This document shows, piece by piece, positions 926 through 13,255 of a stretch of DNA of 64,000 nucleotides. Numbering within the stretch: position 1 is the stretch's first letter; each line of letters begins with the position of its first letter. Source of the stretch: Agitococcus lubricus (GTDB taxonomy: Bacteria > Pseudomonadota > Gammaproteobacteria > Pseudomonadales > Moraxellaceae); contig NZ_QAON01000001.1 of the NCBI RefSeq assembly GCF_003051055.1, positions 496,001-560,000 on the forward strand, given 5' to 3'. A program made the translations under genes and the position numbers. The notes below the pieces were generated by a model. That model was not told the origin of the DNA. It searched no databases and worked only from the letters and a program-made list of their open reading frames with translations.

Positions 926-2470
926 ATGATTTTATCGGCACTCATTCTGATTCCTTTTATTGGTGGCCTACTCTGTTGGTTAGGCGAGCGTTTAGGTGCA
1001 GGCATTCCACGTTGGATTGCCTTATTTAGTATGGCCGCTGTTTTTGGCTTAGGCGTCATGTTGTGGATGCAAGGTGACTATAGCTTAGCCAATCAAACGG
1101 TGGGCGCACATCCACAATGGCAACTTGAAGAGCGTTATACATGGATTCCCCATTTAGGTGTGAGCATCCATTTAGCCTTAGATGGTTTGTCGCTGTTAAT
1201 GGTGCTGTTGACAGGTTTATTAGGCGTGATGGCGGTTGGCTGTTCTTGGACAGAAATTCAGCGTCATGTCGGCTTCTTCCATCTAAACTTATTATGGAGT
1301 TTAGGCGGTGTGATAGGGGTGTTCCTTGCGATTGATATGTTCTTATTCTTCTTCTTTTGGGAGATGATGTTAGTTCCTATCTACTTTTTGATTGCTTTAT
1401 GGGGACACAAGGGCGCCGATGGCAAGAGCCGTATTCACGCTGCGACCAAGTTTTTTATTTTTACCCAAGCCAGCGGTTTAATTATGCTGGTGGGGGTGTT
1501 GGCCTTAGTGTTAGTCAATTACCAAGCTACAGGTAATTTATCCTTTGACTATCACGACCTACTCAATGCACACCAATACATGAGTTTAGACTTACAAAAA
1601 GTCTTGATGTTGACCTTCTTTATTGCCTTTGCGGTGAAGTTGCCGATTGTGCCTGTACATTCTTGGTTGCCTGATGCCCATGCACAAGCACCGACGGCAG
1701 GTAGTGTCGATTTAGCAGGTATTTTGCTAAAAACGGCTGCTTACGGTCTGTTGCGTTTTGCCTTACCTTTCTTTCCTGAAGCCTCACAATGGTTTGCACC
1801 GATTGCGATGTGGTTGGGTATTTTTGGGATTTTCTACGGGGCATTCCTTGCCTTTGCTCAAACCGATATCAAACGTCTCGTGGCGTATACCAGCATTTCG
1901 CACATGGGTTTTGTTTTAATCGGGATTTATTCGGGCAATTTGCTCACGCTGCAAGGTTTAGTGATTCAAATGTTGGCACACGGGATTTGTGCGGGTGGCC
2001 TATTTATTTTATGTGGCCAATTGTATGAGCGTTTACATACCCGTGACTTGCGCGAAATGGGCGGTTTATGGGGACGTTTTACCTATTTACCACCGCTGTT
2101 AATGTTTTTTGCCGCTGCACTATTGGGTATGCCAGGCACCGCGAACTTTGTTGGCGAGTTCCTGATTTTATTAGGGGCATTTAAGGTTGTGCCAGTCATT
2201 ACCATCATTGCCACCTCGAGCCTGATTTTGGCAGGGGTATATTCCTTAATCATGATTCATCGTGCTTTATTTGGTAAAGGTAAATCCGAAGAACAATTAC
2301 CTGATTTATCTGGTCGTGAACTTGGATTAGTCGTGAGTCTAGTCGCTATTTTATTGTTCTTAGGTTTATATCCACAGCCTGTGCTCAATGTTTCGCATGG
2401 GGCTATGTCTGGCATTCAGCAAGCATATTTGCCGTCGCTCATGCCTACAGCACCGACGATTGCTCCGTGA
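926..2470 (+). CDS. nuoM: NADH-quinone oxidoreductase subunit M
   Basis: NuoM is a 514-residue proton-translocating membrane subunit of complex I. About 14 hydrophobic helices are evident. The key glutamate in FFFFWEMMLVPIYFLIALWG and the lysine in FAVKLPIVPVHSWLPDAHAQ match residues needed for proton transfer in this family. The ATG lies 8 bases after the nuoL stop and 7 bases before the nuoN start (2478), so the three genes are translationally close. Length is normal for the family (about 500 residues). No anomaly is seen. Confidence 0.97.
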   Translation: MILSALILIPFIGGLLCWLGERLGAGIPRWIALFSMAAVFGLGVMLWMQGDYSLANQTVGAHPQWQLEERYTWIPHLGVSIHLALDGLSLLMVLLTGLLGVMAVGCSWTEIQRHVGFFHLNLLWSLGGVIGVFLAIDMFLFFFFWEMMLVPIYFLIALWGHKGADGKSRIHAATKFFIFTQASGLIMLVGVLALVLVNYQATGNLSFDYHDLLNAHQYMSLDLQKVLMLTFFIAFAVKLPIVPVHSWLPDAHAQAPTAGSVDLAGILLKTAAYGLLRFALPFFPEASQWFAPIAMWLGIFGIFYGAFLAFAQTDIKRLVAYTSISHMGFVLIGIYSGNLLTLQGLVIQMLAHGICAGGLFILCGQLYERLHTRDLREMGGLWGRFTYLPPLLMFFAAALLGMPGTANFVGEFLILLGAFKVVPVITIIATSSLILAGVYSLIMIHRALFGKGKSEEQLPDLSGRELGLVVSLVAILLFLGLYPQPVLNVSHGAMSGIQQAYLPSLMPTAPTIAP

Positions 2471-2477
2471 GGTCACC

Positions 2478-3986
2478 ATGAACGTAACGCTTGACACGTT
2501 TTTACCGTTATTACCCATTTTAATTTTATGTACTACGACCGTCATTTTGATGTTGGCCATTTCCTTTGTCCGTCATCATTGGTGGAATGCAACCATCAGT
2601 GTTGTTGGCCTAAACTTGGCTTTAGTGAGTACCGTACTGTTAGGTTTAGCCAAACCAGCAGGTTTAGCCGCTATCGTTAGTCAGTTAGGTATTCCACAAT
2701 TTGCACCTGCGCCTGTGATGTCCTTATTGGTGGTAGATGCCTATGCTTATTTTTATATGACCTTGATTTTGGTGGCTGCTTTAGCTTGTACCACCTTAAC
2801 CCATGCATTTTTAGAGCGTTATCAAATTAACCGCGAAGAAATGTATCTGTTGTTGTTGATGGCAACTACAGGGGCGTTGGTATTGGTATGTAGTCGTCAC
2901 ATGACTTCATTCTTTATCGGTTTAGAGTTAATGTCAGTGCCTGTCTATGGCATGGTGGCTTATACCTATCACCGTAGTCGCTCCTTAGAAAGTGGGGTGA
3001 AGTACCTTGTTTTATCAGCGACTGCGTCGGCTTTTATGCTGTTTGGTATGGCGTTAATTTATGCACAAACAGGCACTTTAGCGTTTTCGGGCGTGAGTGA
3101 GCAGTTAGCAGGTGGCGCAAAAATGGGGACATTAGCCAGCTTTGGTGTGGGGATGATTATCATTGCCCTCTGCTTTAAGTTGTCCTTAGCTCCGTTCCAT
3201 TTGTGGACACCTGACGTCTATCAAGGTTCACCTGCACCTGTTGGCGCATTTTTAGCGACCATTAGTAAAATTGCGGTCTTTGCCGTGATGATTCGTTTCT
3301 TAGTCGAAACACCGTTTGAGTACACCTTGCCCTTGCGTGAAGTATTTACCATTGTGGCGGTATTGTCGATTGTGGTCGGTAACTTATTGGCTTTACGTCA
3401 AAATAATCTCAAACGTCTATTGGGCTACTCCTCAATTGCACATTTTGGTTATTTATTAGTAGCCATTGCGTCGGGTGGAGCGACAGCCTTAGAAACCACG
3501 CATGTCTATTTATTGACCTATGTCTTAACCTCATTGGGCGCATTTGGTGTCGTCACCCTGATGTCTTCGGCAGAAAAGGACGAAGATGCAGACAGCTTAC
3601 AACATTACCGTGGCCTATTTTGGCGTCGTCCCTATTTAACGGCGGTAATGACGGTGATGATGTTATCCTTAGCGGGCATCCCACTGACTGCGGGTTTTAT
3701 GGGTAAGTTTTATGTGGTGTTGACGGGCGTGAACACGGGTAGTTGGGGTTTACTGACTGCGGTGGTGCTAGGCAGTGCCATAGGCTTGTACTATTACTTG
3801 CGGGTGATGGTCACGCTGTACATGGCAAGCTCAAACATGCCTAAACATGATGCGGATAGCCACTGGGGCGAACGTGCTGGTGGTCTGATGGTATTAGGTG
3901 TAGCAGGTTTAGTCTTGTTTATTGGTATTTACCCACAACCTGCCCTAGAGTTTGTGCGTATGGCTAAATTATTGATTATTCAATAA
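2478..3986 (+). CDS. nuoN: NADH-quinone oxidoreductase subunit N
   Basis: NuoN is the third antiporter-like complex I subunit. I start it at ATG 2478 (MNVTLDTFLPLLP), giving 502 residues; the open frame reaches back to 2388, but that would overlap nuoM heavily and adds a non-membrane leader unlike the family. Typical motifs are FFIGLELMSVPVYGMVAY and CFKLSLAPFHLWTPDVYQG, with the conserved Glu and Lys of proton transfer. It is the last gene of the nuo operon, followed by an intrinsic terminator at 4016-4044. Confidence 0.96.
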   Translation: MNVTLDTFLPLLPILILCTTTVILMLAISFVRHHWWNATISVVGLNLALVSTVLLGLAKPAGLAAIVSQLGIPQFAPAPVMSLLVVDAYAYFYMTLILVAALACTTLTHAFLERYQINREEMYLLLLMATTGALVLVCSRHMTSFFIGLELMSVPVYGMVAYTYHRSRSLESGVKYLVLSATASAFMLFGMALIYAQTGTLAFSGVSEQLAGGAKMGTLASFGVGMIIIALCFKLSLAPFHLWTPDVYQGSPAPVGAFLATISKIAVFAVMIRFLVETPFEYTLPLREVFTIVAVLSIVVGNLLALRQNNLKRLLGYSSIAHFGYLLVAIASGGATALETTHVYLLTYVLTSLGAFGVVTLMSSAEKDEDADSLQHYRGLFWRRPYLTAVMTVMMLSLAGIPLTAGFMGKFYVVLTGVNTGSWGLLTAVVLGSAIGLYYYLRVMVTLYMASSNMPKHDADSHWGERAGGLMVLGVAGLVLFIGIYPQPALEFVRMAKLLIIQ

Positions 3987-4015
3987 ATGTTTTAGTGTAT
4001 ACAGCAAATGAAGAA

Positions 4016-4044
4016 AAGCCTCATCCATAGATGGGGCTTTTTTT
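4016..4044 (+). terminator. Rho-independent terminator of the nuo operon
   Basis: AAGCCTCAT (4016-4024) pairs with ATGGGGCTT (4031-4039; one G-T wobble) across a 6-nt loop and is followed by a run of T. It lies 30 bases after nuoN, so it probably ends the nuo transcript. Confidence 0.85.
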
Positions 4045-4321
4045 ATGGCTCATGGGTGGGATGGCTTGTAGAGACTAGACAGTATAAATGTGATGATAAC
4101 CACAAATTTTATATGTGTATTATCTGTGCGATGGAGTGATGCGCTATACAAGTAAAATGATTATATATCCATAGTCATGGTTTATTTTGTATCAGCTAAA
4201 AAGTAATTAACAAAATTGATAAAAATCATAGATATGTCACTGAATCTAAGAGCGGAGCAGCTTTTAAGTTTCTTGCAAAAAACCTATCTATGACACATTT
4301 TTTGTCCCAAGGAGCATCGGT
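4045..4321. other. Intergenic region before ompW-like gene
   Basis: This AT-rich stretch has no convincing ORF or repeat. The AAGGAG ribosome binding site of the next gene lies at about 4309-4314; the promoter should lie upstream but no single -10/-35 pair stands out. Confidence 0.5.
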
Positions 4322-4933
4322 ATGCGTACTTTAGTTGCATGTTTACTCAGTTCTTTTATGGTTTTTCCTGTTCTGGCACAAGCAGAATCACCGTGGTCAG
4401 TAAAAATTGGCGGCAGTTATGTAATTCCCAAAAGTAATAATGGCGCTTTAGCAGGTGGTGCAGTAGAGGCAGATGTCAGCTCGGAGTTAGGTTTGACACC
4501 CTCCATACAATATCAATTTAGCCCCAATATTGTGGGTGAAGTCCTATTAGCGATACCCTTTGAGCACGAAGTCAAAGACTCACTGACGGGCGATAAAGTA
4601 GCGACTTTTAAGCATTTACCACCAACTTTTTTTGCAAAATATTTACTAACACCTAATGAGGCGTTGTCCCCTTATGTCGGCTTAGGTCTAAATTACACCT
4701 TAGTCTATGATGAAGAGCTTGATGGCGGCGGTGGTAAATTAAAAGGGGATGATAGTTTTGGTTTGGCAGCGACCGCAGGTGTTGAGTACCGTCCTACCAA
4801 TAGCTCATGGGGCGTTGCACTAGACATTCGTTATATTAAAATTAAAAGTGATTTAACCTTAGATGGTAAAGATATCGGTAGCTTGACCGTTGATCCTTTA
4901 GTCGTCGGTGTCAGTGCCGCTTACCATTACTGA
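4322..4933 (+). CDS. OmpW family outer membrane beta-barrel protein
   Basis: A 203-residue protein with a clear Sec signal peptide (MRTLVACLLSSFMVFPVLAQA, cut about residue 21). The mature part alternates hydrophobic strands with short turns: it opens with SPWSVKIGGSYVIPKSNN, has the segment SPYVGLGLNYTLVYDEE in the middle and ends in an aromatic strand (VVGVSAAYHY), as expected of the eight-stranded OmpW/AlkL barrel. The family forms small channels for hydrophobic compounds in the outer membrane. AAGGAG stands 7 bases before the ATG. The gene appears monocistronic, between the nuo terminator and a convergent gene. The exact substrate cannot be told. Confidence 0.85.
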   Translation: MRTLVACLLSSFMVFPVLAQAESPWSVKIGGSYVIPKSNNGALAGGAVEADVSSELGLTPSIQYQFSPNIVGEVLLAIPFEHEVKDSLTGDKVATFKHLPPTFFAKYLLTPNEALSPYVGLGLNYTLVYDEELDGGGGKLKGDDSFGLAATAGVEYRPTNSSWGVALDIRYIKIKSDLTLDGKDIGSLTVDPLVVGVSAAYHY

Positions 4934-5114
4934 TGTTAGTTTGGTGCACTCACTGTTTTGTTCATCAACCTCTAGACGTAGGTAGGTCAGTGCAATAACT
5001 GCATTTTTTACCCCAACTCAATCCCCCCTGAATAAGGGGTATGCCGAAGACGGGGAGAAAATGTCAATAGAAAAGTTATAAATGCGGAAGTTATCCAAAT
5101 GTCGGCTTTTTTAT

Positions 5115-5588
5115 TTACAGATTTAAATCACTTAAACTAGGATGATCGTCAGGACGACGGCCTAATGGCCAAAAGAATAAACGCTCGGACGCTTTAATGG
5201 GCAAATCATTAATGCTAGCAAAACGACGCTGCATTAAGCCTTGTTCATTAAATTCCCAATTTTCATTGCCATAAGAGCGATACCACTGACCACTATCATC
5301 ATGCCATTCATAGGCAAAACGTACCGCAATACGATTGCCATCAAATGCCCATAATTCTTTAATTAAGCGATATTCCAGTTCACGCGCCCATTTTCGGGTT
5401 AAAAACTCAATAATTTGTGGTCGACCACGCGGAAATTCAGCACGGTTACGCCATTGACTATCTTCGGTATACACCAAAGACACACGTTGAGGATCACGGC
5501 TATTCCAACCATCTTCAGCCATCCGTACTTTTTGAATAGCGGTTTCACGGGTAAAAGGAGGAACAGGTGGACGAATTTCGTGAGTCAT
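5115..5588 (-). CDS. NTF2-like protein, DUF1348 family
   Basis: A 157-residue small cone-shaped NTF2-like protein. It carries the strongly conserved family blocks: [58 protein letters not shown] and a C-terminal [15 protein letters not shown]. The biochemical role of DUF1348 is not established; members are widespread and often sit near redox or detoxification genes. Here it is the distal gene of a minus-strand group with PNPOx-like, glutaredoxin and AhpD-like genes divergent from a LysR regulator. A repeat copy (5604-5704) lies immediately upstream. Family assignment is confident, function unknown. Confidence 0.85.
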
Positions 5589-5603
5589 TATCGTATTCCT
5601 TTT

Positions 5604-5704
5604 TAGGACTTACGCGGTTATCGCTTATTTGCTCGCATTTAAATCGTTTTTAACGATTTTATGCTCACAAAACGCGCTAATTTCGGGGAAATGCGTCAGT
5701 CCTA
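5604..5704. repeat. MITE-like repeat family A, copy 1
   Basis: A 101-bp element bounded by inverted ends TAGGACTTACGC and GCGTCAGTCCTA (one mismatch), with a small central palindrome (AAATCGTT/AACGATTT). It is the reverse complement of the copy at 6816-6915 and is related to the copy at 52421-52544. It lies between two genes of one probable operon. Confidence 0.85.
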
Positions 5705-5710
5705 TTTTGC

Positions 5711-6355
5711 TTAAGGTTTAAATAGTTCAGCACCACCAGAGTGTAATGCGCGCTGCTGGTTTTGGAGCTGTATTTTGAGTTGTGCAACCTGTTGATGTAA
5801 GTCTGCTAATTGTTCAGTGAGTTCATCTTCACTATAACGGGGCGTAATATGTTTTGGACAATTCCAGTCCCATGCCTCAACACGAATTAAAATACCACGT
5901 TCAACAGGCGCACGGTAATCAGGCATCTCTAATTGTGCTAATAACTCTGGATGATCATCAGCATGAATAATCTGTGTCGTTCCCCAAAGTTTTAAGCGAC
6001 GTTTATTGGGGTAATCCATCAAAAATAAGGAAATTTTATGATTGGCAGTCAGGTTGCCAACACTCAGGTATTGCCGATTTCCAGAAAGATCGGCATAACC
6101 CAAGGTACGACTGTCTAAGGCTTTTAAAAATCCACGTGCACCACCACGATGTTGCACATACGGCCAACCTTCTTCGTTAACGGTTGCCTGATAAAAGCTA
6201 TTACGTTCGGCAATAAAAGCAATTTCACGGGCAGTGAGTTCGTTACGAGGATCAGTCGCCAGTTCAAAGCCTCGGTTTGCCTCACGACTGCCGTAACGTG
6301 TTTGTGCCGATTTAACGGCTGGCGTAAAAGTTAATTCAGCAAAAGCACGGGGCAT
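5711..6355 (-). CDS. Pyridoxamine 5'-phosphate oxidase-like FMN-binding protein
   Basis: A 214-residue protein starting at ATG 6355 (MPRAFAELTFTP), preceded by GGAG on the minus strand; the open frame continues six codons upstream to a TTG, which is less likely. It has the split-barrel flavin-binding fold signature of the PNPOx-like superfamily: FIAERNSFYQATVNEEGWPYVQHRGG, then GYADLSGNRQYLSVGNL and RRLKLWGT. Residues about 175-210 form a Gln-rich coiled coil (EQLADLHQQVAQLKIQLQ). These proteins reduce or bind small substrates with FMN or F420; the substrate is not predictable. It sits between a glutaredoxin and an NTF2-like gene on the same strand. Confidence 0.82.
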   Translation of the reverse strand: MPRAFAELTFTPAVKSAQTRYGSREANRGFELATDPRNELTAREIAFIAERNSFYQATVNEEGWPYVQHRGGARGFLKALDSRTLGYADLSGNRQYLSVGNLTANHKISLFLMDYPNKRRLKLWGTTQIIHADDHPELLAQLEMPDYRAPVERGILIRVEAWDWNCPKHITPRYSEDELTEQLADLHQQVAQLKIQLQNQQRALHSGGAELFKP

Positions 6356-6512: not shown

Positions 6513-6791
6513 TTAACTTAGTTCTGACGAATGGTATGAGTTGTTAATCAGTTTTAGCAATTCGCCACTCTGTTCATAAGCAACTAAATCATTAAAGCCA
6601 CCAATATGAACATCGCCAACAAAAATTTGCGGTACAGTACGACGGCCACTACGTGTAATCATAGACTCTAATTGAGTATCTGATTGATCAACACGGATTT
6701 TTTCAACCGTTGCACCCACCCGTTTTAATAAATTCTCGGCTTGCACACACCAAGGGCAAGTACCTGTACTATAGACGGTGACAGCAGTCAT
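6513..6791 (-). CDS. grxC: Glutaredoxin, GrxC type
   Basis: A 92-residue dithiol glutaredoxin that reduces disulfides with glutathione in the cytoplasm. The active site is CPWC (C12, C15) rather than the commoner CPYC. The cis-proline motif TVPQIF and the glutathione-binding GGFNDL follow at the expected positions. It lies within a minus-strand cluster of redox genes, about 150 bases upstream of the PNPOx-like gene. Because the main housekeeping grxC often neighbours secB, this may instead be an accessory paralog; the gene symbol denotes the subfamily. Confidence 0.88.
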   Translation of the reverse strand: MTAVTVYSTGTCPWCVQAENLLKRVGATVEKIRVDQSDTQLESMITRSGRRTVPQIFVGDVHIGGFNDLVAYEQSGELLKLINNSYHSSELS

Positions 6792-6815
6792 GATGGTTCT
6801 CCTCAGAGTTAAAGG

Positions 6816-6915
6816 TGGACTTACGCATTTCGCTGAAATTAGCGCGTTTTGCGAATATAAAACCGTTGAAAACGGTTGAAATGTGAGTAAATAAGCGATA
6901 ACCGCGTAAGTCCTA
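6816..6915. repeat. MITE-like repeat family A, copy 2
   Basis: A 100-bp element with ends GGACTTACGC (6817-6826) and GCGTAAGTCCTA (6904-6915) and a central AACCGTT/AACGGTT palindrome. It is in inverted orientation relative to copy 1 at 5604-5704. It separates the AhpD-like gene from the glutaredoxin gene. Confidence 0.85.
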
Positions 6916-6923
6916 AAAAATGC

Positions 6924-7463
6924 TTAGATAGTTAAAGCGACTTTTGGAAAGTCAATGTCAACACGGCTGGCTTTACCAATTAAGTTGGTTAAGAAATTCA
7001 GGCCAACGTGGGTAATTACTTCAACGATATCACTATCGCTATAGCCTGCTTGACACATCGCTTGAATTTCACCTGTCGTGACTTCACCTTTGTGTTCAAT
7101 CAACGCACGGGCAAATTGCACAGCAACAGCAGCTTTTGCGTCTTGGCTGCCACCTGCGCGATTTGCGGCCATTTCTTCATTGTCTAAGCCAGTTTTGCGG
7201 CCAATGGCGGTGTGTGCAGAAACACAATATTCACAAGTGTTTTGTTGAGCAATCGCTAAGGCAATACGCTCACGAGTGGCGGCATCTAAACTGCCTTCAT
7301 TAGCAATACTGTGGAAGCCTAAAAAAGCACGCAATGCAGCAGGAGAATTAGCAAAAATTTTTAAGAAGTTTGGCACCATGCCGAGTTTCTGTTGGATGGC
7401 ATCAAACAATGCTAATTGTTCTTGGTTAGCAGTTGCCTTAGTGACAGTGTTAATACGGCTCAT
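6924..7463 (-). CDS. AhpD-like / carboxymuconolactone decarboxylase family protein
   Basis: A 179-residue all-helical protein of the AhpD-like superfamily. The catalytic signature CEYCVSAHT (C77, C80, H84) with the upstream RERIALAIAQ helix indicates alkylhydroperoxidase-type thiol chemistry. It is the first gene of a minus-strand cluster and starts 136 bases from a divergent LysR gene, so it is the likely principal regulatory target. The spacing region holds a 27-bp palindrome (7533-7559). Peroxidase activity is inferred from the motif, not shown. Confidence 0.88.
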   Translation of the reverse strand: MSRINTVTKATANQEQLALFDAIQQKLGMVPNFLKIFANSPAALRAFLGFHSIANEGSLDAATRERIALAIAQQNTCEYCVSAHTAIGRKTGLDNEEMAANRAGGSQDAKAAVAVQFARALIEHKGEVTTGEIQAMCQAGYSDSDIVEVITHVGLNFLTNLIGKASRVDIDFPKVALTI

Positions 7464-7532
7464 GATTTTTTCCTCGCTTAGGCTTGTTGGTGTGGGTATA
7501 GTGATATAGTTTATTTTTTTAAAGAATCCTTG

Positions 7533-7559
7533 TTTTAGGTAATTATTTATTGCCTAAAA
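7533..7559. promoter_or_regulatory. Candidate LysR-type operator
   Basis: TTTTAGG..AAT (7533-7543) is mirrored by ATT.CCTAAAA (7549-7559) around a 5-base centre in the divergent intergenic region. LysR regulators usually bind interrupted dyads of this kind (T-N11-A core). Its position between the LysR gene and its neighbour fits autoregulation and control of the redox cluster. Confidence 0.6.
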
Positions 7560-7599
7560 TGGAATAATGATGGTATTAAAGAGAAAAAAAGGGAAATAT

Positions 7600-8499
7600 A
7601 TGGATCGTTTAGACTTAATGACGATTTTTGTCGCTGTTGCTGAAGCCGAAAGTTTTTCGGGTGGAGCAAGACGTTTGGCGATGTCACCACCTGCCGTCAC
7701 CAGAGCCATCTCAGCTTTAGAAAGTCGGTTGGCGGTTAAATTATTAGATAGAACAACACGTTATGTTCGAGTAACCGAGTTAGGTCAACGCTATTTGGAT
7801 GATGCTCGGCGTATTATTGCCGAAGTTGATGAAGCCGAAGATGCCTTGGTTGGCATTAATGGCACGCCCAAAGGGCAATTAACCCTAACCGCACCCGTCT
7901 TATTTGGCAAAATGTTTGTCATGCCTGTGGTTGTTGAATATTTACAACGTTATCCCAGCATGGATGTCAGTGCCTTGTTTTTAGATCGTGTGGTTAACAT
8001 GATGGAAGAAGGCGTAGATGTGGGCATTCGGGTTGGTGAATTACCAGATTCCAGTTTAAAGGCGGTGCGTATCGGGCAAATCCGTCGGGTGTTATGTGCC
8101 TCACCACAATATTTGGCGGAATATGGTGTGCCTAATCATCCTCATGATTTGCAACAGCATCGAATTGTTGCGGCAACGGGGGTAACACCCAGCGTGGAAT
8201 GGAAATTTTGGCAAGAGCAACAAGCTTTGTCGGTACGTTTGCGACCACGTTTAACGGTGACCACCAATGATGGTGCGATTGAATCTGCCTTAGCAGGCTT
8301 TGGTGTGACACGTTTAATGTCGTATCAAATTGCGCACTTTGTCGAGAGTGGTCAATTACAGATTTTATTGCCCGATTTTGAGTCAGCACCCTTACCGATT
8401 CATGTCTTGCATCGTGAAGGTCGACATAAATCGGCGCGTGTGCGTAGTTTTGTCGATTTAGTCGTTGAACGTTTACGCCAAGAAAAAGCCTTGAGTTAA
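7600..8499 (+). CDS. LysR family transcriptional regulator
   Basis: A 299-residue LysR-type regulator from ATG 7600 (MDRLDLMTIFVAVAEAESFS), preceded by AGGGA; the frame also opens at 7567, but that adds a lysine-rich leader unlike the family. The N-terminal winged helix-turn-helix is clear (AARRLAMSPPAVTRAISALE-like region, residues about 18-40, actual text GARRLAMSPPAVTRAISALE). The C-terminal co-inducer domain follows (LTAPVLFGKMFVMPVV onward). It is divergent from the AhpD-like/Grx/PNPOx/DUF1348 cluster, which it probably regulates. The inducer is unknown. Confidence 0.92.
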   Translation: MDRLDLMTIFVAVAEAESFSGGARRLAMSPPAVTRAISALESRLAVKLLDRTTRYVRVTELGQRYLDDARRIIAEVDEAEDALVGINGTPKGQLTLTAPVLFGKMFVMPVVVEYLQRYPSMDVSALFLDRVVNMMEEGVDVGIRVGELPDSSLKAVRIGQIRRVLCASPQYLAEYGVPNHPHDLQQHRIVAATGVTPSVEWKFWQEQQALSVRLRPRLTVTTNDGAIESALAGFGVTRLMSYQIAHFVESGQLQILLPDFESAPLPIHVLHREGRHKSARVRSFVDLVVERLRQEKALS

Positions 8500-8624
8500 T
8501 CGCATTAAAATTATTGCAAAAATAACAATTATGATTTGCTTTTTATAGGTATTCTCGTTAATTAAAGAAATAATCACAATAGCACTCATCAAATAGTATT
8601 TATCTTCATCAAAAGGGTAAAACC

Positions 8625-9653
8625 ATGAGTGCTGTTGTTGCTTTATCGTCATGGCCAATTAATGCTGAAACGCCAATGGCCAATGCGCCAAGTATTGAAT
8701 TGCCCAATGGTTATATTGGCATTCCTCAGCACTATTTACGTTATCAACAAACCCTAAGCTCTGTGCGTGCTTTACTCGCTGATATTCAGTTTGACGATAA
8801 AACCTTGTTGTTTGCAGGGCAAGACCCTAATGGTTTGTATATTCAAGTGGGTATCATTGGCCGTGAAAATTATGAGCGTGGTGATCAACAGCGCCCACAC
8901 AAATTGGTTTATGGTCGTAAATGGCGTATTGACCGTGACACGCCAAGCTCCGAAGTCATTCAAACGGCATTTTTGGCGATTAGCAAAGCCTATGAGCATG
9001 AAGTACGAGAATTATTAACCGTAAAAGATGCTTGGTAAGCAAAGGTCAGTGCGCCATTTAGCTGTCATCAAGATTTGCCTTTATTGACAGAAAATGCTGA
9101 TTTGGTTGCAGCAGAAGAGCAAGCTCGTTTGCAAACGTTGGCCGATATTGAGCAATTATTGGCAGGTGTAAAGTTTGCTCAGCATGACATTGACGTGGTG
9201 AGTTTTCATGCTCAACAGCCATTTAGTTATTTAGTGGTACGTTTGGGCAATACACCTCTGGCTCGTCAGCAAGAAGGGGATTTAGCCTATTTTAATCAAC
9301 AGTTGGTGTCAGTGACCTTACAGGAGAATACCGCTTCTGAGGTGTTGTTTGCTTTATTAGATAGTTTTTTGCACATTAATCAACGTTGGGTTGAGGAGAC
9401 TTTTGCTTATCAAGGTTTTGCGCGTTTTAGTCGTAGCCTTGATCCACGTCAAATTGCGGCGGTATCTGTTGCGACTCGTCCTTATCGTCGTGATGCAACG
9501 AATGAACATTTTAGCCGTGGTTTCCGTCAGGCCAATTATAATGTTGATCGTTCGCGTGTGCCAAGCTTGGGAACGGGCTTTTTAGCCAAGCGTAATCGTG
9601 AGGTTATTCAAGCTTATCAAGGCTTGTTGGGACATATGCCTGATGGGTTGTAA
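8625..9653 (+). pseudogene. Two-domain conserved protein split by an in-frame TAA
   Basis: One reading frame runs from ATG 8625 to 9653 except for a single TAA at 9036-9038, after TTG-free codons DAW. The first part (137 residues) and second part (from 9039, 204 residues) look like diverged copies of one domain: SSVRALLADIQFDD.. aligns with TLADIEQLLAGVKFAQ.., and SSEVIQTAFLAISKAYEHEV with ASEVLFALLDSFLHINQRWV. The sequence between TAA and the next possible start (TTG 9075) stays open and protein-like (AKVSAPFSCHQDLP), so this is most simply one gene with a nonsense codon, or a readthrough gene. No ribosome binding site precedes TTG 9075. I do not recognise the family. Confidence 0.6.
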
Positions 9654-9772
9654 GTTTAAGGTGGGTGATTAAAGATGTATTTTAATTTGAGATATTTAGT
9701 GAAGGGTAGTTGATTTTTGGTAATAAATTTAGTCATATAGCATTATAACAATAAGATTTAGGGGCTAAAAAT

Positions 9773-12700
9773 ATGAGCATGGAAGAGGCATTGAGGCGTA
9801 TTGCGGAGTGTAAAAAAAATCATACTTTAGAATTAAATTTATCTAGCTTGAATTTAGAAGAAATTCCTCAAGAATTGACTAGATTAGTATGGTTAAAATA
9901 CTTAAATTTAAATGGCAATCAACTGAGCAAACTAGAAGGATTAAACTATCTTTACTTATTGAAAAGCCTTAATTTAAGTGAAAATCAACTAACTAAAATA
10001 GAGGGCTTAGAAAATCTTAAATCATTGGAAAGCCTTGGTTTAAGTGAAAATCAATTAACTAAAATAGAAGGCTTAGACAAACTTCAATCACTGACAGAGC
10101 TTAATTTAATTGGCAATCAACTAACTAAAATAGAGGGTTTAGAAAATCTTAAATCATTGACGCTCCTTTATTTAGATAACAATCAACTAACTAAAATAGA
10201 GGGTTTAGAAAATCTTAAATCATTGACAAGACTCGATTTAGATAATAATCAACTGACTAAGATAGAAGGTTTAGACAAACTTCAATCATTAACAGAGCTT
10301 TATTTACGTGGCAATCAACTGACTAAAATAGAAAATTTAGACAAACTTCAATCACTGACAGAGCTTAATTTAATTGGCAATCAACTAACTAAAATAGAGG
10401 GTTTAGAAAATCTTAAATCATTGACAAGACTCGATTTAGATAATAATCAACTGACTAAGATAGAAGGTTTAGACAAACTTCAATCATTAACAGAGCTTTA
10501 TTTACGTGGCAATCAACTGACTAAAATAGAAAATTTAGACAAACTTCAATCACTGACAGAGCTTAATTTAATTGGCAATCAACTAACTAAAATAGAGGGT
10601 TTAGAAAATCTTAAATCATTGACAAGACTCGATTTAGATAATAATCAACTGACTAAGATAGAAGGTTTAGACAAACTTCAATCATTAACAGAGCTTTATT
10701 TAGATAACAATCAACTGACTGATATAGAAAATTTAGACGAACTTCAATCACTGACAAGTCTTGATTTAAGTGAAAATAAAATTAATTTAGATGTTTTAAA
10801 AATTGTTGTATTTCCAGAAAATTTAATTGAATTAAAAATTGCTAATAATCCATTTTGCCAAGAATGTGGTTTGGTGTTAGATGAATATTGGGATGCCAAT
10901 CATTTAAAAATAATTAAAAGCTTTTTAGCGCAAGAGCATCGAGAACTATCTTTACCTTGTCGCATCATGTTATTAGGTAATCATGCCGCAGGAAAAAGCA
11001 GTTTATTGCATTATATTAAGTATCAAACCTTAGCTCAAAAAAGTCGTAGTACACATGGTTTACAAGTAGAGTCATTAACCTTCTCTCAAAGTGCTACCTT
11101 ACCCGATGCAATATTTTTTGATTTTGGCGGCCAAGATTATTATCACGGAATTTATCGTTTATTTTTGCGTCAACAAAGTAGCCAAATTATTGTGGTTAAT
11201 CCTAGCTATAACGTTAATCAACTACGTTTAGAAAATTCCGAAACGGTTGATAATCAACAATATACCCAAGATTTTAGCCTTGATTATTGGGCAGCACAGC
11301 TTAGTTATTTTCATCATGCAAATGATGAGCAAATAATGAATAAAGATACGTTTTTAGTGCAAAGTTATGCAAATAGTCATCAGCAACAATGGCATTATAG
11401 CCATTGCCTAGAGTCTCGTTTGCTACGTTTTGATTATTTAGAGTTAAAAAATAATCCTCAACTCTTAAACTTACAGCATTTTCGCGAAGCATTGTTGCTC
11501 CATATTAAAAGCAATAAAAAGACGGTTTTTCAAACAGAAAAAAGGAGTCAGCTAATTAAATATGTACTAGCAAATTGGCATGGGGAAAAAATATCTTCAA
11601 AGCCTATCAAAGTTGATACACTCAATCTTAAGTTAAATAAGAAAAAATATCCCTTAGACTGGTTTAAAATAGATTTAAGCCAATTAAGTGCTGCTGGTTT
11701 AATTTGGTATGACGAAAAAATCGCAAATGGTGACTTTGTTTGGCTTAATCCTAAAGCTCTAGTCGAAGATTTACATCAACGCGTTTTTAGTCCTGAATGT
11801 TTACGCCATGCTAGCCATCAGGGGCGATTAACAGCAAAAGAATTAGAAAAACTAAAATTACATCAGGCAACAATAGAGTTATTACAGTTTTATCGTGTCA
11901 TTTTTAAGCATCAGCCTAATAAGTTTGATGATCAAAAGATTGAATATATTATCCCTAATTATTTACCCTTATCATCACAGGATAATGCGTTATATAGCTT
12001 AAGCACCTTTGGTTTAGAGCAAGCAACTTTTAGACTACGTTTTTTGCATTTTATGCCAATAGGCTTAATTAATCATGTAGTGTGCTTTTTTGGTCTTCAG
12101 CCTGATTACAAATTATTTTGGCGTGATTTAATCGTTTTTACCTTATCGGAGGAATTACAAGGGCGTTATCGAATAATGATTAAATTGGATTTTAATCAAT
12201 TAGAAATACAAGTGTGTATTCAGCCTCAAAATAATAAAAATAAAGAAGAATATCAACAAGTTAAAAAATATTTATTTTATTGTTTAATGCGTTTTTATTG
12301 GGATTTATATGCTAATGATGGTGAGCCTGCTACATTTACTCATTTTAGAGCTATATTGATAAATAATGAGCCAGAGTTTGAACATGAAAAAGAGGGGAAA
12401 CGTGCAGTATGGGGTAATCCTGAATATTGTTTCGGTCGTCCTATATGGTCACGCTTTTATGCGATTAGGCCAAATCGAACAGAGACTGAAAGTTTACGCT
12501 TTATTCCTAATGATTTATATGTGTCGATAGGAGCAGAGCATTGGGTGTATTATCATCAATTGGCTCAACATCCAAATAATGAACCCCATATTCAAAGTTA
12601 TCGCTTAGAAGAAAGTACCCCCAAATTAGCAAAAGTTATCCCAGTCAAACCCTTTGAAATATTTTTAAATCGTGAGTTACGCGCCGTGAAAAAGATTTTT

Positions 12701-13255
12701 ATTTCTTATAGTCGTAAAGATGTTGAATATAAAGATGAATTAAGCCTATTTCTAAAAACCACGTTAGGTAGTCATGGCCATGAAGTATGGGATTGTGGTT
12801 TGTTGGAGGAGGGCAAATGGGATGAGCAAATTCAAACAAAATTAGCCGAAGCGGATTTAGTGATTTTTATGTTATCTATTAATTTTTTTGCTTCTAACTA
12901 TATTGTTAATCAAGAGTTATTAAATACATTAGCTAACATTAATCAGGCAAATGCCAAACAAAAAATTATGTGCATTGTGGTTAAAACTTTTCCTTGGGAT
13001 AGTTTTGCAAGATTGGCCAAACAAAGTCACGTTGATGATGACAGAATTGGCGAATTAGCAGACATCTATCATCAAAAACCGCAAAAAGAAGACATTACAC
13101 AATACCAATTTTTACCGTATCGCCGTTTGCCTCAGAGCAGTATTAATGACCAAAAACACGAGTTAATTATGCCGTTGGCGCGCATGTCTGCTGATGAACG
13201 TGATGAAGTATATTCTGATATTGTGGCACGAGTGATGAAGGCTTTAGGTATTTAA
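9773..13255 (+). CDS. LRR-Roc-COR-TIR (ROCO family) protein
   Basis: A 1160-residue multidomain protein. Residues about 20-345 hold 14-15 leucine-rich repeats of exactly 22 residues (NQLTKIEGLxxLxSLTxLxL, SDS22-like). A Roc GTPase follows, with P-loop GNHAAGKS at 402-409 and a switch-II DFGGQDYYHG. A COR-like region spans about 600-950. A TIR domain begins at residue 973 (KKIFISYSRKD) and includes SINFFASNYIVNQEL with a glutamate at the catalytic position of NAD-cleaving TIRs. No signal peptide. The coding sequence is much more AT-rich than neighbours, suggesting horizontal acquisition. ROCO-TIR proteins are candidate immune or signalling proteins; the function here is inferred only. Its last 12 bases overlap the convergent BtuF-like gene. 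Confidence 0.9.
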   Translation: MSMEEALRRIAECKKNHTLELNLSSLNLEEIPQELTRLVWLKYLNLNGNQLSKLEGLNYLYLLKSLNLSENQLTKIEGLENLKSLESLGLSENQLTKIEGLDKLQSLTELNLIGNQLTKIEGLENLKSLTLLYLDNNQLTKIEGLENLKSLTRLDLDNNQLTKIEGLDKLQSLTELYLRGNQLTKIENLDKLQSLTELNLIGNQLTKIEGLENLKSLTRLDLDNNQLTKIEGLDKLQSLTELYLRGNQLTKIENLDKLQSLTELNLIGNQLTKIEGLENLKSLTRLDLDNNQLTKIEGLDKLQSLTELYLDNNQLTDIENLDELQSLTSLDLSENKINLDVLKIVVFPENLIELKIANNPFCQECGLVLDEYWDANHLKIIKSFLAQEHRELSLPCRIMLLGNHAAGKSSLLHYIKYQTLAQKSRSTHGLQVESLTFSQSATLPDAIFFDFGGQDYYHGIYRLFLRQQSSQIIVVNPSYNVNQLRLENSETVDNQQYTQDFSLDYWAAQLSYFHHANDEQIMNKDTFLVQSYANSHQQQWHYSHCLESRLLRFDYLELKNNPQLLNLQHFREALLLHIKSNKKTVFQTEKRSQLIKYVLANWHGEKISSKPIKVDTLNLKLNKKKYPLDWFKIDLSQLSAAGLIWYDEKIANGDFVWLNPKALVEDLHQRVFSPECLRHASHQGRLTAKELEKLKLHQATIELLQFYRVIFKHQPNKFDDQKIEYIIPNYLPLSSQDNALYSLSTFGLEQATFRLRFLHFMPIGLINHVVCFFGLQPDYKLFWRDLIVFTLSEELQGRYRIMIKLDFNQLEIQVCIQPQNNKNKEEYQQVKKYLFYCLMRFYWDLYANDGEPATFTHFRAILINNEPEFEHEKEGKRAVWGNPEYCFGRPIWSRFYAIRPNRTETESLRFIPNDLYVSIGAEHWVYYHQLAQHPNNEPHIQSYRLEESTPKLAKVIPVKPFEIFLNRELRAVKKIFISYSRKDVEYKDELSLFLKTTLGSHGHEVWDCGLLEEGKWDEQIQTKLAEADLVIFMLSINFFASNYIVNQELLNTLANINQANAKQKIMCIVVKTFPWDSFARLAKQSHVDDDRIGELADIYHQKPQKEDITQYQFLPYRRLPQSSINDQKHELIMPLARMSADERDEVYSDIVARVMKALGI
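10201..10700 (+). repeat. 198-bp tandem repeats inside the LRR gene
   Basis: The 198-bp unit (three 22-residue LRRs) at 10201-10398 is repeated without visible change at 10399-10596, and a third copy runs from 10597 for about 100 bases before diverging. The 66-bp LRR units before and after are similar but not identical. The unit length is a multiple of three, so gain or loss keeps the frame. Confidence 0.92.

What the first reader, a model, noticed from the sequence alone, without database searches (positions are those of the whole stretch)
9773..13255. LRR-Roc-COR protein ending in a TIR domain: candidate immune-type NADase
The sequence shows an SDS22-like LRR array, a P-loop GTPase with GNHAAGKS, a COR-like region and a C-terminal TIR with a Glu in the expected catalytic helix. 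Known bacterial TIR domains often cleave NAD, and LRR/NTPase-TIR fusions resemble immune receptors. The gene is AT-rich and stands alone, as expected of an acquired defence gene. An anti-phage or signalling role is inference; there is no partner gene near it.
Basis: partly seen in the sequence, partly recalled or inferred. Interest (0 to 1): 0.75.

Follow-up and report, generated by a model that had tools for sequence, protein, structure and literature searches.

The report
Bacterial LRR–ROCO–TIR immune-type protein
This bacterial gene encodes one large protein that joins a repeat-built sensor, a GTPase switch related to human LRRK2 and a TIR domain that probably destroys or converts NAD; the architecture had been predicted to guard against invaders, and this is a rare, divergent, recently acquired member rather than a new kind of system.

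Summary
Confirmed: window 9773-13255 (+) is one intact 1160-aa ORF with LRRs (14 regular 22-aa units), a Roc GTPase, a divergent COR and a C-terminal TIR. Pfam sees LRR, Roc and TIR; COR was shown by profile and fold matches to LRRK2 and Chlorobium Roco.

The architecture is known: Kaur et al. 2021 predicted bacterial LRR–Roc–COR proteins with swappable C-terminal effectors, TIR included, as counter-invader systems. The same genome carries a second ROCO ending in the GT4-conflict effector.

New here:
- The protein belongs to a sharply separate, patchy clade of seven (support 100/100).
- Its LRR array contains a DNA-perfect 198-bp tandem amplification.
- Its G4 motif has lost the base-reading Asp (D to N).
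- Its conserved TIR Glu1048 sits in a YxxxxE rather than WxxxE register.
- ROCO-TIR relatives lie beside Thoeris-type TIR/SLOG genes in three genomes and beside a type IIG restriction system in one.

In its own genome it stands alone, is absent from sampled relatives and is AT-rich, which fits acquisition.

Best reading: a single-gene, LRR-sensing, GTPase-gated TIR NADase acting in phage defence or abortive infection. NAD cleavage and defence are inferred, not tested. New member of a known kind.

The parts
9773..13255 (+). LRR-Roc-COR-TIR (ROCO-TIR) gene, 1160 aa
   Evidence: ORF; Pfam; fold
9824..10843 (+). N-terminal LRR array (aa 18-357): 14 regular 22-aa units from aa 41; predicted ligand-sensing part
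   Evidence: LRR_4, 12 stretches; unit register; TRF period 66, 13.2 copies
10180..10702 (+). DNA-identical tandem repeat, period 198 bp (three LRRs): 325-bp exact repeat, 10180-10504 = 10378-10702; recent expansion of the LRR array
10961..11497 (+). Roc GTPase domain (aa 397-575; Pfam 397-480)
   Evidence: profile match to LRRK2 and CtRoco; fold
10976..10999 (+). G1/P-loop GNHAAGKS (aa 402-409)
11120..11137 (+). G3/switch II DFGGQD (aa 450-455)
11363..11374 (+). G4 motif SYAN (aa 531-534), in the place of [TSG][HYF][AV]D in the six relatives; the base-reading Asp is Asn (codon AAT 11372-11374)
11510..12307 (+). COR domain (about aa 580-845), divergent; not scored by Pfam in this protein
12308..12682 (+). 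Linker between COR and TIR (about aa 846-970), with a subfamily-conserved P-x-D-L-Y-x-S ... F/W-V ... L stretch
   Evidence: low model confidence at aa 850-887
12689..13252 (+). C-terminal TIR domain (aa 973-1160)
   Evidence: (TIR_2 aa 975-1072)
12914..12916 (+). Predicted catalytic Glu1048, helix aa 1042-1056, in YxxxxE register

Best explanation
A horizontally acquired, single-gene bacterial immune-type receptor. The LRR array binds an invader molecule or a disturbed host target (inferred). Binding is relayed through the Roc-COR GTPase, which in ROCO proteins changes between dimer and monomer with nucleotide state (known for CtRoco; inferred here). This lets the C-terminal TIR domains associate and become active (inferred). 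The TIR then cleaves NAD+ through Glu1048, either exhausting the pool or making an ADP-ribose product, and so stops growth of the infected cell (inferred). Shown here: domain make-up and order, folds, conservation of the Glu, patchy distribution, recent LRR amplification, and recurrent Thoeris-type or restriction-modification neighbours of relatives. The direct-depletion version is preferred for this genome because no STALD or LD_cluster3 SLOG receptor was found in it, though that negative is weak.
For: Domains. Clade: window plus six proteins from Bacteroidota and Rheinheimera, support 100/100 on a long stem; sister group (95/93) is 13 Bacteroidota ROCO-TIRs. All members whose contig reaches the C-terminus have a TIR, and L062 ends inside one. 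Glu conserved in 34 of 35 ROCO-TIRs; the profile aligns it with the Glu of TIRs such as Cat1 and BtTir with a one-residue shift. Neighbours: Niastella vici L063, five PADLOC-ThsB-like genes plus LD_cluster3 SLOG on the same strand immediately upstream; L064, the same TIR and SLOG types plus a NACHT-like gene; Chryseobacterium gambrini L073, sister-clade ROCO-TIR followed by the same set; L062, type IIG RM. Patchy spread: no subfamily member other than the gene itself in 391 (order), 398 (phylum) or 369 (class) sampled genomes. AT-rich. Second ROCO with the PF20706 GT4-conflict effector in the same genome, the pattern of swapped effectors described by Kaur et al. 2021.
Against: No experiment shows NADase or anti-phage activity for any bacterial ROCO-TIR in the paper library searched. 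No defence neighbour in the window itself. Glu is in YxxxxE, not the WxxxE described for NADase TIRs. G4 Asp replaced by Asn, which could weaken GTP specificity. Neighbour evidence is a handful of loci without a formal control.
Confidence: 0.6

Rival explanations
1. The ROCO-TIR is an additional sensor of a Thoeris-type pathway: its TIR makes a cyclic or modified ADP-ribose signal that a separate SLOG or macro-domain effector reads, rather than depleting NAD itself.
For: Relatives in three genomes sit next to ThsB-like TIR genes and an LD_cluster3 SLOG gene. The window's genome has its own island of ThsB-like TIR genes on another contig. Thoeris systems are known to use several ThsB sensors with one effector (PMC11204291).
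Against: No STALD or LD_cluster3 match in the window's genome (weak negatives, since the STALD control rang nowhere and LD_cluster3 only weakly in one genome). Four of six subfamily loci have no such neighbours. The window gene is alone.
Confidence: 0.2
2. A non-defence signalling protein: a ROCO switch whose TIR is a protein-interaction scaffold without enzymatic activity, used in stress response or development.
For: YxxxxE register differs from the motif described for NADase TIRs; some relatives have ordinary neighbours such as glutamate dehydrogenase; TLR TIRs are scaffolds and appear among the best profile matches.
Against: Near-invariant Glu across divergent ROCO-TIRs, patchy distribution, LRR turnover, recurrent defence neighbours; no orthologue in the sampled genus or family, so not a core function.
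Confidence: 0.13
3. A decaying copy: the G4 Asp-to-Asn change marks a protein that has lost its GTPase switch and is on the way out.
For: D534N is unique to the window protein among the seven members.
Against: The frame is intact over 1160 codons, P-loop, switch I and DFGGQ are intact, and the TIR Glu is kept. Some other ROCOs (L056, L057) also have a non-Asp residue at the aligned G4 position. Recent in-frame LRR amplification suggests a gene in use.
Confidence: 0.07

Closest known systems
Bacterial AP-GTPase (Roc)-COR conflict proteins with LRRs and variable C-terminal effectors (Kaur, Iyer, Burroughs, Aravind 2021, PMC8195603)
   Same: LRR, Roc, COR and a C-terminal effector; TIR named among the effectors; several copies per genome with different effectors (here TIR and GT4).
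   Different: This protein is in a divergent subfamily with a Pfam-invisible COR, a distinct GNH P-loop and an altered G4. Whether that study's data set includes this subfamily could not be checked.
Chlorobium tepidum Roco and human LRRK2
   Same: Same Roc-COR fold and order; best structural matches.
   Different: C-terminal TIR instead of no added domain (CtRoco) or kinase-WD40 (LRRK2); 10-16% identity in the structural matches.
Niveispirillum cyanobacteriorum plasmid protein WP_158660235.1 (L058), a Roc-COR-TIR
   Same: Same order of Roc, COR and TIR.
   Different: Falls in another part of the ROCO tree; no LRR hit in its 723 aa.
Plant TIR-NLRs and bacterial TIR-NLR (STAND) proteins
   Same: Work-alike plan: repeat sensor, NTPase switch, TIR output.
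   Different: The switch is a Ras-like Roc-COR GTPase, not a STAND/NB-ARC ATPase; domain order is reversed, with LRR first and TIR last.
Thoeris (ThsA/ThsB)
   Same: TIR output domain; relatives lie next to ThsB-like and SLOG genes.
   Different: No ThsA partner here; the TIR only weakly matches ThsB profiles (2.5e-6).

Membership tests
ROCO (Roc-COR) proteins | Roc GTPase domain with P-loop and DFGGQ switch II | tested here: met
   Pfam PF08477 42.9 bits; motifs invariant in the subfamily
ROCO (Roc-COR) proteins | COR domain directly after Roc | tested here: met
   Not by Pfam, but by profile to LRRK2/CtRoco and fold
ROCO (Roc-COR) proteins | Intact G4 base-reading Asp (THxD in LRRK2, from memory) | tested here: not met
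   SYAN at aa 531-534; the six relatives keep Asp. A departure within the family, not a defining exclusion
ROCO (Roc-COR) proteins | Nucleotide-dependent dimer-monomer cycle | not testable with these tools
   Needs biochemistry
LRR-AP-GTPase-COR conflict proteins (Kaur et al. 2021) | N-terminal LRRs, AP-GTPase-COR core, C-terminal effector of conflict type | tested here: met
   effector list in PMC8195603 includes TIR
LRR-AP-GTPase-COR conflict proteins (Kaur et al. 2021) | Rapidly evolving LRRs | tested here: met
   325-bp perfect repeat at 198-bp spacing; unit number and consensus differ between relatives
LRR-AP-GTPase-COR conflict proteins (Kaur et al. 2021) | Paralogues with different effectors in one genome | tested here: met
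   C33 protein (L053) LRR-Roc-COR-GT4-conflict, PF20706 414 bits
NAD-cleaving TIR domains | TIR fold | tested here: met
NAD-cleaving TIR domains | Catalytic Glu in helix C, WxxxE motif | tested here: inconclusive
   Glu1048 conserved in 34/35 but as YxxxxE; WxxxE from PMC11374754
NAD-cleaving TIR domains | NAD+ hydrolysis | not testable with these tools
   Needs an assay
Thoeris | ThsA effector beside the TIR gene | tested here: not met
   No defence neighbour in the window; STALD and LD_cluster3 not found in the genome (weak negatives)
Bacterial NLR/STAND-TIR | STAND NTPase (NACHT or NB-ARC) | tested here: not met
   The NTPase is Roc; no NACHT/NB-ARC Pfam match

The most novel reading that the evidence does not exclude
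The subfamily is a distinct class of GTPase-gated TIR sensors that plug into Thoeris-type SLOG pathways where these are present and act alone where they are not. In the window member, the G4 Asp-to-Asn change may have altered the nucleotide that gates it (for example xanthine rather than guanine nucleotides, as in engineered D-to-N G proteins; from memory).
Probability: 0.12. Interest if true: 0.75.

Novelty: new member of a known kind. Interest (0 to 1): 0.42.

Why it matters
Bacterial ROCO proteins have been studied mainly as models for LRRK2, and their natural role is open; no experiment on a ROCO-TIR turned up in the papers searched. A one-gene, intact ROCO-TIR with a readable output (NAD loss) and a recently amplified LRR array makes that question directly testable: whether ROCO GTPases are immune switches in bacteria and what GTP turnover controls. 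It also gives a bacterial case of the LRR-plus-TIR logic of plant and animal immunity built on an unrelated NTPase.

Tried and rejected
Single-query pattern scans of genome contigs and viral contigs gave nothing, because single-protein patterns were too specific; an alignment query then found the clade. Viral contigs again gave none with the subfamily alignment. Phage records gave only LRR-LRR matches, mostly to Listeria records, which were rejected as homologues of the whole protein, and none for the Rheinheimera relative. TIR-only matches in the same order are N-terminal TIR proteins with another NTPase and were rejected as relatives of the whole protein. Internalin and XopAC NCBIfam matches are far below their curated cut-offs, come only from the LRRs, and were rejected. 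Flank comparison for an empty site failed because neither flanking gene was found in the other genomes of the genus searched. No terminator-like site was found and promoter-like hits were at chance level; inverted repeats around the gene looked like chance matches in AT-rich DNA. A macro domain suspected in the N-termini of L063/L064 was not confirmed (Pfam Macro E 0.32 in L064 only; PDB nothing).

Full report
Observation. The ORF at 9773-13255 (+) is intact and encodes 1160 aa. Pfam places LRRs, Roc (aa 397-480) and TIR_2 (aa 975-1072) above their cut-offs. The LRR array has 14 regular 22-residue units. A stretch of 325 bp repeats without a single difference at 198-bp spacing, 10180-10504 = 10378-10702, so three-LRR blocks were copied very recently. 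The NCBIfam internalin matches come only from the LRRs and miss their cut-offs by far.

COR. Pfam COR-A and COR-B do not score the window protein. The region aligns with COR of other ROCOs. A profile of the seven-member subfamily runs continuously through LRRK2 Roc-COR and hits Roc and COR stretches of CtRoco. The AlphaFold model of aa 378-1160 from a 33-row alignment matches LRRK2, LRRK1, CtRoco and Methanosarcina Roco2 best. COR is therefore present and divergent.

TIR. The model of the TIR alone matches RPS4, RUN1 (including the NAD-bound E100A mutant structure), TLR1, AbTir, BtTir and SPARTA TIRs. Glu1048 lies in the expected helix and is Glu in 34 of 35 ROCO-TIRs, but as [YF][IV]xxxE, so the aromatic is one residue further from the Glu than in the WxxxE motif reported for NADase TIRs. 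The catalytic Glu is well supported; activity is not shown. Pocket geometry could not be measured because the tools return no coordinates.

Relatives. The gene is absent from the three other genomes of its genus searched, and no other subfamily member was found in sampled genomes of order, phylum and class. They are a Bacteroidota MAG, a Prevotellaceae MAG, a Flavobacterium MAG, a Bacteroidetes MAG, Niastella vici and Rheinheimera sp. SA_1. On a Roc-COR tree they and the window protein form one clade (100/100) on a long stem, next to 13 Bacteroidota ROCO-TIRs (95/93); the GT4 ROCO of the same genome lies in the other half of the tree. In that tree the TIR label needs about 14 changes, which suggests repeated swapping of effectors. 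The tree was drawn with L062 and L064 labelled as without TIR only because their contigs end too early. N-termini vary too: an arginase-family domain is fused in front of the LRRs of L059, and an unidentified module in L063 and L064.

G4. The six relatives have [TSG][HYF][AV]D; the window protein has SYAN with codon AAT. This Asp reads the guanine base in Ras-like proteins (general knowledge). The change may lower GTP affinity or alter specificity; this is inference.

Context. In Niastella vici the ROCO-TIR follows five ThsB-like TIR genes and an LD_cluster3 SLOG gene on the same strand. In L064 the same TIR and SLOG types lie nearby, with a NACHT-like gene between. In Chryseobacterium gambrini a sister-clade ROCO-TIR is followed by the same set. 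L062 is beside a type IIG restriction system. L060 is beside glutamate dehydrogenase and L059 beside mostly unidentified genes; L061 has a second ROCO-TIR in tandem. This is more than one chance adjacency but not a controlled test. In the window the PADLOC matches at E <= 1e-10 are polymerase/helicase-type, one protein per family, which I read as housekeeping genes.

Acquisition. GC 0.319 and GC3 0.233 lie nearly five and more than three standard deviations below 41 other window ORFs. Its stop overlaps the convergent neighbour by 12 bp. Neither direct neighbour was found in the other genomes of the genus searched, so an empty site could not be shown.

Known work. Kaur et al. 2021 describe bacterial LRR-AP-GTPase-COR proteins with at least 24 alternative C-terminal domains, TIR and GT4 among them, as predicted counter-invader systems, with several paralogues per genome. 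The window's genome fits: a TIR version here and a GT4-conflict version on C33. I found no experimental paper on a bacterial ROCO-TIR in the library searched; subscription papers are mostly not held.

Mechanism. Best supported: an LRR sensor and Roc-COR switch gate TIR assembly and NAD cleavage, a one-gene abortive-infection device. Sensing, gating, NAD cleavage and defence are all inferred; architecture, folds, conservation and distribution are shown. The Thoeris-linked signalling version is the main rival.

Verdict. Observation confirmed, interpretation partly supported, new member of a known (predicted, untested) kind, with a few unusual features worth a bench test.

Noticed in passing
L053 (G000:C33) 1681-6213 (-): Second ROCO in the same genome: 1510 aa, LRR-Roc-COR-GT4-conflict (PF20706, 414 bits), followed directly by a 315-aa PLD-like protein; the small contig also has a Bro-N gene.
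   Followed up: partly
L054 (G000:C25) 6533-11195 (+): Island of four TIR-family genes in a row (one ThsB_TIR type, three TIR_2/PDC-S66-like or related) with a small unidentified gene among them, downstream of a primase-like PriCT_2/Toprim/DUF927 gene: looks like a multi-TIR, Thoeris-like set on an integrative element, without a recognised ThsA.
   Followed up: partly
L063 495-10271; L064 1065-8999; L073 6708-16398: A recurring gene set, ThsB-like TIRs + PDLC00434-type TIR + LD_cluster3 SLOG, next to ROCO-TIRs in three Bacteroidota: a candidate compound Thoeris-type system.
   Followed up: partly
L059 6231-10193 (+): ROCO-TIR with a complete arginase-family domain (PF00491, 185 bits) fused in front of the LRRs.
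   Followed up: no
L063 6237-7400 and L064 6246-7400: Shared N-terminal module of about 380 aa before the LRRs; looks macro-like by eye but only E 0.32 to Pfam Macro in L064.
   Followed up: partly
A4 alignment, 34 of 35 ROCO-TIRs: TIR helix-C motif is [YF][IV]xxxE rather than WxxxE; the same register is seen in N-terminal TIR-NTPase proteins of the same order (L009-L012).
   Followed up: partly
window 8625-9038 and 9075-9653 (+): Two small genes upstream without significant Pfam, PADLOC or NCBIfam matches; the second has one 42% identical relative in 30 other genomes of the family.
   Followed up: no
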